Source of the DNA: Caldilineaceae bacterium | Lineage (GTDB): Bacteria > Chloroflexota > Anaerolineae > Caldilineales > Caldilineaceae | DNA length: 33,100 nucleotides | Assembly: GCA_020433455.1 (NCBI GenBank) | Contig: JAGRCP010000016.1 | Coordinates: 1-33,100 of the forward strand | Direction: 5' to 3' | Notes under the pieces: model-generated | Databases searched by the model: none | The model's input: the letters and a program-made list of their open reading frames with translations, nothing else | Told to the model about the DNA's origin: nothing | Position numbers and translations under genes: made by a program | Shown: positions 702 through 33,100 of the stretch, piece after piece | Layout: every line of letters starts with the position of its first letter | Numbering within the stretch: the stretch's first letter is position 1

Positions 702-3182
702 ATGAACATTCCCGCCCTTGCCTGGCTGGGCATTGGCCTGCTCTGGCTGGCGCTGGTCCGGCTTCTGCGCCGGCGGGAAACGCACCGACCCGCCGCCCCC
801 GCCTACAGTTGGGACGTGCTCGCAGGAGGCGCGCTCTTCCTGCTCACCGCGGGCTTCTTCTGGCGCACAATCAGCGGCGACGTCTTCCAGCCCGCGGACG
901 GCGGCGATCTGGTGAGCTTCCTCTTTCCCACCTATCGCTTTGCCGCGGCCCAGGTTGCCCAGGGCTCGTTGCCTCTGTGGAACCCGACCCTCTATGGCGG
1001 CGCGCCCTTCATCAGCGACATCCAGGCCGGCTTTCTCTACCCGCCCAACCTGCTCCTCTTCCTGCTCAAGCCCGACTTCGGCTACCCCATTTTGCAGTGG
1101 CTGAGTATAGGCCACCTCTACTGGGCGGGGCTGGGCGTCTACGTTCTCGTACGCGTCCTGCGCCCAGGCGGCAGGGAGATATCGCGCCCGGCCGCGCTCT
1201 TCGCTGCCCTGGCCTTCCAATTTAGCGACCCGCTCCTGCTCCATTTGGGCAACCTCAACCTCATCGCCGTGCTGAGCTGGCTGCCCTGGGTGCTGGCCGC
1301 CTTCCACCTAGCGCTGACCCGCCGCTCCACGGCCTGGGCCGTCCTCGCGGGCGTCCTCTTCGCCATCGCCAACTACGCAGGCCATGCGCCCAGCACCGTC
1401 TTTCTGGGCATGGCAATTGGGTTTTACTGGATTGGGTGGGTGAGTAAGGAAAAATTGAAGATTGAAGATAAAAGATTGGAAGCAAGCGACTCGCCGCCAA
1501 TCTCCCAATCCCCCAATCTCCCAATCTCCAATCTTCAATCTTCTAATCTTCAATCTTCAATCTTCAATCTTCAATCTTCAATCTTCAATCTTTTTATCGT
1601 CATCATCCTCGCCGGCCTCCTCACCGCGCCAATTTTGTTACCTGCCTTCCAGCTCACCGCCTTCACCGAACGCAGCGACTTCGTCTACCAGGATACGGTG
1701 GCCTATTCCCTGGCTCCGGCCCAGGCGATTGGGCTCATCACGCCGGGCTTCTTTGGCCGGGGACCGGCCCTCCATTGGGGCTTGTGGGATCGGGTAGAGT
1801 TGCCATATGCAGGCGTGGCCGCGCTCCTGCTGGCTCTGGGCGCGCTGTTGATCGGATCGCGCCGGACGCGCCGGGATCTGGTCCCGTGGATGCTTCTGGC
1901 CGCGGTGGGCTTTCTCGCCGGACTGGGCATCTACGCCATTATCCACGGCTGGCTGACCCTGGTCGTACCCGGCTTCGATCAGTTCCGCGCGCCGGCCCGG
2001 GCCCTGGTCCTGTGGACGCTGGGCGTAGCCGTGCTCAGCGCGGCGGGCCTTGACGCGATTGCAGCCTGGGGCGGCAAACGGGTGACCGATGCAGCATACA
2101 ACCGCTTCCGCCGCCTGCTCCAGTGGGGCGGACTGCTCCTGGTGGGCGTCTTCGTCCCCCTCATGTATCTGGCCCTGCTCCTCACTCAGTCCGACCCCAC
2201 GGCCTTTCTGCGCGCGTCCGTGGCAAGTCTGGCCATGACGCTGGCCGCGAGCTTCTGGCTCGTGACGTGGGCGCTCATCGCGCTGCGCCGGGGGGAGATC
2301 ATCTCCGCGCCCCTCTTTGCCGGACTCATGATCGCCCTGCTCTTTCTGGACCTGAGCGCCACCGGTGCGTACACGGACATCAGCCCCAATGATCCGGCCG
2401 CCAACTTCCAACATCCTGAAATCGTCGCCTTCCTGCACGATGACCCGGACCGCTTCCGCATCGACACCCGGACGGACATCGCCGATCTCTGGCAGCCCGA
2501 CGCGGCCGCGCTCCACGGTCTGGAGGATGTGTGGGGCGTGGCCAATCCCCTCATGCTGGAAGAGTGGAACGCCCAGTGGGAAGCCACGGGCGGGCGCCAA
2601 ACCCGGCGCTACGATGCGCTCAACGTTAAGTACGTCCTGGTGCGCGACGGCACACCCTTGCCCGACGGCAAGTTTGAGCTGGCCCTGGACGCGCCTGGCG
2701 ATCTCTCCGTCTATCGCAATCTGGATTTTTGGCCCCGGGCGTGGCTGGTGCATGACCTTATCAGTAGCGACGCAGCGCATGAGGCAGATCCGACCGTAGC
2801 GGCCGTCATGGAAGAAAATGAGGGGCAAGGTCTCACCGTGGAGCCGGCCGTAGGCGAGGAGAGCGTACACGAAGTCAGCTATGGCGCATCCGTCCAAAGC
2901 TGGCGGGTAAACGCGGACGCGCCCGGCCTTCTGGTCATGAGCGAGACCTGGTATCCCGGCTGGCGGGCTACGGTAAACGGAGCCGAAATGCCCGTCTTGC
3001 GCGTCAACGGCGCGCAGCGGGCCGTGGCCGTGGCGGCGGGCGAGTCGCTTGTGACACTACGCTTCGCGCCCCAGAGTTGGCGCGTGGGGTTACTCTTGTT
3101 CGGCGTGGGGATTGTGTTGGCGGCGCTGCTGCTGTGGATTGGACGGAAGCGAACTTCTCACGGCATCCAGGACGCGGCATAG
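702..3182 (+). CDS. YfhO-family multi-pass membrane protein (GT-C-like)
   Basis: This 826-residue integral membrane protein has an N-terminal TM helix (about 4-22) and many further TM segments to about residue 550. A large extracytoplasmic region follows, and the last TM helix (about 798-818) is followed by a basic tail. PADGGDLVSFLFPTYRF (64-80) and PLWNPTLYGGAPF (91-103) are hallmark first-loop motifs of YfhO/GT-C-type proteins. The YPGW element near residue 750 matches the family's C-terminal beta domain. Family members act in polymer or lipid glycosylation; the substrate here is unknown. Residues about 247-298 are an oddity: a low-complexity insert (SSIFNLQ repeated) encoded by heptamer DNA repeats and placed just before a TM helix. 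The 3' end overlaps the convergent Nudix gene by 25 bp. ATG 702 was chosen because an upstream ATG at 693 runs into a stop after three codons. Confidence 0.8.
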   Translation: MNIPALAWLGIGLLWLALVRLLRRRETHRPAAPAYSWDVLAGGALFLLTAGFFWRTISGDVFQPADGGDLVSFLFPTYRFAAAQVAQGSLPLWNPTLYGGAPFISDIQAGFLYPPNLLLFLLKPDFGYPILQWLSIGHLYWAGLGVYVLVRVLRPGGREISRPAALFAALAFQFSDPLLLHLGNLNLIAVLSWLPWVLAAFHLALTRRSTAWAVLAGVLFAIANYAGHAPSTVFLGMAIGFYWIGWVSKEKLKIEDKRLEASDSPPISQSPNLPISNLQSSNLQSSIFNLQSSIFNLFIVIILAGLLTAPILLPAFQLTAFTERSDFVYQDTVAYSLAPAQAIGLITPGFFGRGPALHWGLWDRVELPYAGVAALLLALGALLIGSRRTRRDLVPWMLLAAVGFLAGLGIYAIIHGWLTLVVPGFDQFRAPARALVLWTLGVAVLSAAGLDAIAAWGGKRVTDAAYNRFRRLLQWGGLLLVGVFVPLMYLALLLTQSDPTAFLRASVASLAMTLAASFWLVTWALIALRRGEIISAPLFAGLMIALLFLDLSATGAYTDISPNDPAANFQHPEIVAFLHDDPDRFRIDTRTDIADLWQPDAAALHGLEDVWGVANPLMLEEWNAQWEATGGRQTRRYDALNVKYVLVRDGTPLPDGKFELALDAPGDLSVYRNLDFWPRAWLVHDLISSDAAHEADPTVAAVMEENEGQGLTVEPAVGEESVHEVSYGASVQSWRVNADAPGLLVMSETWYPGWRATVNGAEMPVLRVNGAQRAVAVAAGESLVTLRFAPQSWRVGLLLFGVGIVLAALLLWIGRKRTSHGIQDAA
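1453..1594 (+). repeat. Heptamer tandem repeat with complementary arm, inside a CDS
   Basis: The left arm (about 1454-1482) carries ATTGAAG-type units. The right arm (1497-1594) carries AATC words spaced 7 or 8 bases apart, ending in a run of near-perfect CAATCTT units. The arms are complementary, so the block could fold as a hairpin. It stays in frame in the host gene because three 7-mers make 21 bases, giving a seven-residue peptide period. Confidence 0.85.
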
Positions 3183-6150: not shown

Positions 6151-6248
6151 GCAAGTTGCAAGTTGCAAGTAGGCAAGTCGCACGTTCTGAGGCCACGGGA
6201 GATCGGAGATACCCTGCCACCTGCCACCTGCCACCTGCCACCTGCCAC
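6151..6248. repeat. Heptamer repeat pair (GCAAGTT units, then CACCTGC units)
   Basis: The left block 6151-6177 has GCAAGTT-type units. The right block 6213-6248 has about five CCACCTG units. Read on one strand the units share the scaffold GCARGTK, so the blocks can pair with some wobble. The same CACCTGC heptamer recurs inverted at 33076-33100. The block lies upstream of the minus-strand nitrilase-like gene. Confidence 0.85.
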
Positions 6249-6377: not shown

Positions 6378-6453
6378 GCCCCCATCGTCTAGAGGACTAG
6401 GACTCAGGCCTTTCAAGCCTGCAACAGGGGTTCGAATCCCCTTGGGGGTACCA
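6378..6453 (+). tRNA. tRNA-Glu (anticodon TTC)
   Basis: The full cloverleaf is visible. The acceptor GCCCCCA pairs with TGGGGGT (first pair G-U). The D arm contains CTAGAGG, the anticodon stem CAGGC/GCCTG encloses CTTTCAA with anticodon TTC, and the T arm AGGGG/CCCCT encloses TTCGAAT. The discriminator is A, and the CCA end is encoded. It closely resembles bacterial tRNA-Glu, including the TCGTCTAGAGG 5' part. Confidence 0.97.
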
Positions 6454-33075: not shown

Positions 33076-33100
33076 GTGGCAGGTGGCAGGTGGCAGGTGG
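33076..33100. repeat. GTGGCAG heptamer repeat at the window end
   Basis: Three and a half GTGGCAG units run off the window edge directly upstream of the minus-strand GT2 start codon. The unit is the inverse complement of the CACCTGC heptamer at 6213-6248. Confidence 0.85.

What the first reader, a model, noticed from the sequence alone, without database searches (positions are those of the whole stretch)
1453..1594. Heptamer element translated in frame inside a membrane-protein gene
The element sits inside the YfhO-type CDS and adds about 50 residues, with a seven-residue SSIFNLQ period, between two membrane segments without breaking the frame. This is a recent insertion or expansion candidate, and copy-number changes not in multiples of three units would switch the gene on and off, as in phase variation.
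Basis: partly seen in the sequence, partly recalled or inferred. Interest (0 to 1): 0.65.

Follow-up and report, generated by a model that had tools for sequence, protein, structure and literature searches.

The report
Heptamer palindrome inserted in a gene
A membrane-protein gene of a Caldilineaceae bacterium carries, in frame, one copy of a genome-wide kind of insertion built from two facing arrays of 7-base repeats around a short unique centre; it looks like a tolerated passenger that recurs in the same loops of several proteins, and nothing found shows that it is an on/off switch.

Summary
The repeat is real. It runs 1451-1592: a left arm (1451-1479), a 17-nt unique centre (1480-1496) and a right arm of inner octamers and outer heptamers (1497-1592; six perfect CAATCTT units at 1551-1592), translated in frame in an 826-aa YfhO-like gene. 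Repeat-free orthologues have 28-42 residues where this protein has 61, so the net gain is 19-33, not 50. It is one of dozens of copies in this genome. RarA and Mfd carry similar in-frame elements, and related genomes carry different heptamers, in the same layout, in the same loops of all three proteins. Opposed array pairs face each other with the G-rich strand pointing to the centre (17 of 17 in 2.6 Mb). Arms can be different heptamers. Insertion is supported. Phase variation is arithmetically possible, but every repeat-bearing gene examined is in the ON frame. A telomerase-like reverse transcriptase is not the general cause: four element-bearing genomes have none. Known relatives in kind are heptameric simple repeats and Rickettsia palindromic elements; the polarity, hybrid arms and lineage-specific heptamers at shared loops I found described nowhere. 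The generating mechanism is open.

The parts
702..3182 (+). YfhO-like membrane protein gene (826 aa) that hosts the element
   Evidence: open frame; orthologues in 61 of 61 relatives; Pfam YfhO sub-threshold; AlphaFold2 model pLDDT 81.6, pTM 0.87
1451..1479 (+). left arm, G/purine-rich heptamers AAAATTGAAGATTGAAGATAAAAGATTGG
   Evidence: inverted repeat of the right arm, 88% over 32 nt
1480..1496 (.). unique centre AAGCAAGCGACTCGCCG; centres of other copies are different sequences
   Evidence: other copies
1497..1528 (-). right arm, inner part: octamer-like units (G-rich strand reads GGGAGATT)
   Evidence: TRF period 8
1529..1592 (-). right arm, outer part: CAATCTT heptamers (G-rich strand AAGATTG), six perfect units at 1551-1592
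6151..6248 (.). second, hybrid element in the window: (GCAAGTT)n left, (CCTGCCA)n right, intergenic
33076..33100 (+). start of a third element, (GTGGCAG)n, which runs into an assembly gap just beyond the window and has an inverted right arm

Best explanation
The feature is one copy of a class of dispersed insertions common in Caldilineaceae and other Anaerolineae: two arrays of 7-8-base repeats face each other (G-rich strand pointing inwards on both sides) around a short unique centre. The whole arm-centre-arm unit is extra sequence added at the site. Copies persist between genes and in surface or inter-helix loops of proteins, where the C-rich arm is open in all three frames and the G-rich arm is short enough, or lies in a frame, to avoid its TGA codons. 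In this gene it lengthens a permissive loop between two membrane helices by about 20-30 residues of low-complexity, heptad-periodic peptide, and is most likely a neutral passenger, not a regulated switch. Shown: anatomy, copy number, polarity, recurrence in the same loops of three proteins, in-frame state. Inferred: neutrality, and the mechanism of birth. My preferred guess for birth is slippage or extension of 3' ends at a break or extruded hairpin, followed by joining at the centre, which would give facing arrays, different arms and a random centre; this step is not shown.
For: About 40 other places in the same genome match; 180 pattern hits in G000 and 153 in G012, with five more family members above a handful, 9 of 120 genomes in all. 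Lag-7 arrays 51 against 1 shuffled in 786 kb. Inverted partner arm on the inward side for 25 arrays, outward 0, shuffled control 0 at 13/14; opposed pairs 17 G-C against 0 C-G, p = 1.5e-5, of which 5 hybrids, 7 same-family and 5 intermediate. RarA loop 22 residues in most relatives but 67, 56, 42 and 40 in four genomes carrying heptamer palindromes of different sequence; Mfd loop 32-47 in genomes without repeats, 51-69 in six or seven with them. The same YfhO loop holds GGGTATT, GGGGATT, AAGAATA and other arms in other genera. Arrays are depleted in genes: 17 of 56 in long ORFs against a coding mask of 90%. C-rich arms are open in all frames, GAAGATT arms carry TGA in all frames.
Against: No very near relative with an empty site is held, so the exact junctions and any target duplication are unseen. 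One pair points outward (L181:1053-1085). Conserved inner motifs (CCTAACGAAATA) next to the arms in one genus suggest that some copies could descend from a mobile master. A function of the insert in this protein is not excluded.
Confidence: 0.7

Rival explanations
1. Phase-variation switch: slippage in the heptamer tract turns the membrane protein on and off.
For: Six perfect 7-base units inside the ORF; any change not a multiple of three units truncates the protein at 355-459 aa. Heptamer tracts are a known substrate of phase variation in other bacteria (own knowledge; PMC8262952 appeared as a lead but was not read).
Against: All repeat-bearing YfhO, RarA and Mfd genes examined are in the ON frame; the same element class sits in housekeeping genes and mostly between genes; orthologous Mfd inserts in G006 and G018 have equal length. 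Selection for intact genes would also produce the ON state, so this is not decisive.
Confidence: 0.1
2. A classical non-autonomous mobile element (MITE/REP-like, or like Rickettsia palindromic elements) that is copied by a transposase.
For: Dispersed palindromes, in-frame in genes as for Rickettsia palindromic elements (PMC10969869); conserved inner motif in genus g7; two Y1 transposase-like genes in G000.
Against: Centres and heptamers differ from copy to copy and genome to genome, and hybrids join unlike arms. G031 has no Y1_Tnp yet has heptamer arrays, though those are mostly single-armed.
Confidence: 0.15
3. Telomerase-like addition by a reverse transcriptase with an RNA template (as in DRT10).
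For: Facing G-rich repeats with fixed-phase inner ends look like joined telomeres; DRT10 makes tandem repeats from an RNA template in bacteria (PMC12632851).
Against: G006, G009, G011 and G013 carry heptamer elements and have no RVT_1 match; the two reverse transcriptases of G000 lie, by my reading of the flanks, in a CRISPR-Cas1 locus and a diversity-generating retroelement.
Confidence: 0.03

Closest known systems
Heptameric simple sequence repeats (STRR of cyanobacteria; GGGNATC repeats of Xanthomonas and Nostoc, PMC4692102; GATAGRA satellites of Chloroflexus aurantiacus, PMC6749651; TAACTGA repeats of Beggiatoaceae, PMC4679880)
   Same: dispersed tandem heptamers, mostly between genes, lineage-specific sequence; in Xanthomonas/Nostoc the preferred strand relative to neighbouring genes fits the same inward polarity
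   Different: here arrays come in facing pairs around a unique centre, with hybrid arms, and recur in frame in the same loops of orthologous proteins; the passages of these papers that I read do not describe this
Rickettsia palindromic elements (Ogata et al. 2000; via PMC10969869)
   Same: palindromic insertions kept in frame inside unrelated protein genes
   Different: those are about 150-bp families with conserved sequence and peptide; here arms are short tandem repeats whose sequence changes by lineage and centres are unrelated
Contingency loci with tandem repeats (phase variation)
   Same: repeat unit not a multiple of three inside an ORF
   Different: no OFF state seen, host genes include housekeeping genes, most copies lie outside genes
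DRT10 / telomerase and interstitial telomere repeats
   Same: G-rich repeats facing a junction
   Different: no reverse transcriptase in several element-bearing genomes

Membership tests
Phase-variable contingency locus | tandem repeat with unit not a multiple of 3 inside an ORF | tested here: met
Phase-variable contingency locus | OFF-frame alleles occur | tested here: not met
   none among repeat-bearing YfhO, RarA, Mfd genes; single assemblies only
Phase-variable contingency locus | unit number varies within a population | not testable with these tools
   no reads and one genome per species
Heptameric SSR / STRR | tandem 7-base units dispersed over the genome, over-represented between genes | tested here: met
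Heptameric SSR / STRR | unit of the named G-run type GGGNATC or GGGGA(C/T)T | tested here: not met
   window unit is GAAGATT (outer) and GGGAGATT (inner); related genomes do use GGGGATT/GGGGACT
Rickettsia palindromic element | palindrome inserted in frame in genes | tested here: met
Rickettsia palindromic element | conserved family consensus of about 150 bp with a conserved peptide | tested here: not met
   centres differ and heptamers change by lineage
REP/MITE moved by a transposase | co-occurring Y1 transposase (RAYT) | tested here: inconclusive
   present in G000, absent in G031, which has mostly single arrays
REP/MITE moved by a transposase | target site duplication | not tested
   no empty site near enough in sequence
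DRT10/telomerase-like product | reverse transcriptase with matching RNA template in the genome | tested here: not met

The most novel reading that the evidence does not exclude
A bacterial process without a reverse transcriptase extends both 3' ends of a break or cut hairpin with lineage-specific G-rich heptamers and joins them, leaving facing repeat arrays around a random junction, comparable to interstitial telomere repeats; genes survive only where such scars fall in frame in loops.
Probability: 0.12. Interest if true: 0.85.

Novelty: new variant of a known kind. Interest (0 to 1): 0.52.

Why it matters
Heptamer repeats are the commonest long simple repeats in many bacteria and have no settled origin. 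Facing polarity, hybrid arms, a unique centre and repeated arrival of different heptamers in the same loops constrain how they can arise: neither slippage alone nor one clonal mobile element gives all four. It also shows an inflow of low-complexity, heptad-periodic peptide into conserved proteins such as Mfd and RarA.

Tried and rejected
Telomerase-like/DRT10 reverse transcriptase: searched RVT_1 in G000 and 60 relatives; several element-bearing genomes have none. RAYT transposase: no clean co-occurrence. Rfam: nothing at the element. Named relatives with the single protein as query: none (with the alignment worked, one search did not). Literature by sequence string: no paper; by Caldilinea plus repeat terms: nothing relevant. 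Cyanobacterial plasmid for a polarity test: accession not held and BLAST masks simple repeats. A loose array detector found few pairs in G006/G013/G031 because second arms are short; reading the flanks shows the facing layout.

Full report
What was checked. The window is G000:C8:1-33100, a 5.25-Mb assembly in 172 contigs. Named relatives with the best matches are Caldilineaceae, Chloroflexota. The element at 1451-1592 is an inverted pair of short-repeat arms around a 17-nt centre, folds better than shuffles on either parameter set, and is read in frame in an 826-residue ORF.

Orthologues. All 60 relatives searched have homologues. In the segment that corresponds to residues 244-304 repeat-free orthologues have 28-42 residues, this protein 61, the nearest relative (G012, 67% identity) 75 with its own heptamer arms. 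Other genera carry other heptamers there, again with inverted arms: GGGTATT, GGGGATT/GGGGACT, AAGAATA, CAATTTT and GGGGATC/GCGATTG. In the AlphaFold2 model the insert extends helices 229-263 and 276-307 with a low-confidence turn; with no deep alignment of the repeat this is only suggestive.

Other proteins. The same kind of insert is found in frame in Mfd, RarA, an HRQ1-like helicase (two inserts), a GlyQ-GlyS-like fusion and a membrane protein with three inserts. For RarA most relatives have 22 residues at the site; G000 has 67, G012 56, G003 42 and G004 40, and the last two are clean GGAGATT and GGAGACT palindromes. For Mfd, six or seven of the genomes carry heptamer arms, some with unlike arms (G014, G018); G006 and G018, of one genus, share the centre and the length. 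The centre is part of the added sequence, since it has no counterpart in short orthologues.

Genome scale. In 786 kb of G000 lag-7 arrays are 51 against 1 in shuffled sequence, lag-8 21 against 1, other lags 6-13 against 0-4. In 400-kb samples lag-7 also dominates in G006 and G031, not in G013. The exact CAATCTT family is confined to a few genera: 9 of 120 genomes. In the YfhO-type ORFs of 34 Caldilineales contigs arrays are four times as dense as in the flanks (0.42 against 0.10 per kb), concentrated in 10 contigs, and the ORFs stay open.

Polarity. For skewed arrays in four genomes an inverted partner lies on the side to which the G-rich strand points in 25 cases at 13/14 identity, on the other side in none, in shuffled flanks in none. 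Adjacent opposed arrays over 2.58 Mb are 17 G-C and 0 C-G (p = 1.5e-5), with 5 pairs of unlike heptamers; 5 further neighbouring pairs have the same orientation. One outward pair was seen in the YfhO contigs (L181:1053-1085). In G000 the inner units tend to be GGGAGATT and the outer ones GAAGATT on both arms (by eye). In genus g7 the right arm is shared by three genomes while the left arm of L019 has outer GGGTATT and inner GGGGATT units, which could mean that inner units are younger; this is an inference from few cases.

Mechanism. Step shown: whole units are gained at loops and between genes, and genes remain in frame. Step inferred: copies are neutral. Step unknown: how facing arrays of a lineage-specific heptamer arise. 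Slippage accounts for tandem growth and perhaps for the length of seven (proposal of Mrazek and co-workers, cited in PMC4679880) but not for the polarity. A clonal mobile element accounts for polarity but not for hybrids and changing heptamers. Extension of 3' ends followed by joining accounts for all of these but has no known enzyme here; a reverse transcriptase is excluded as the general cause.

Phase variation. The frame arithmetic is correct. No OFF allele, no population data, conserved length in one congeneric pair and presence in housekeeping genes speak against it as the role of the element; it is not excluded for this gene.

Verdict.

Noticed in passing
window 6151-6248: Hybrid facing element, (GCAAGTT)n and (CCTGCCA)n, intergenic, upstream of a tRNA gene at 6378-6450.
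   Followed up: partly
window 33076-33100 and L092:1-190: (GTGGCAG)n array runs into 86 N and is followed by the inverted arm: such elements break the assembly.
   Followed up: partly
L072 (G000:C155): Reverse transcriptase beside formylglycine-enzyme-like ORFs, looks like a diversity-generating retroelement.
   Followed up: no
L071 (G000:C60): Reverse transcriptase in what looks like a CRISPR Cas1/Cas2 locus.
   Followed up: no
L042 (G000:C142): One membrane-protein ORF with three separate heptamer inserts in frame.
   Followed up: no
L037 (G054 YfhO orthologue): A different in-frame insert, CHSEERSDEES type, at another site of the same gene.
   Followed up: no
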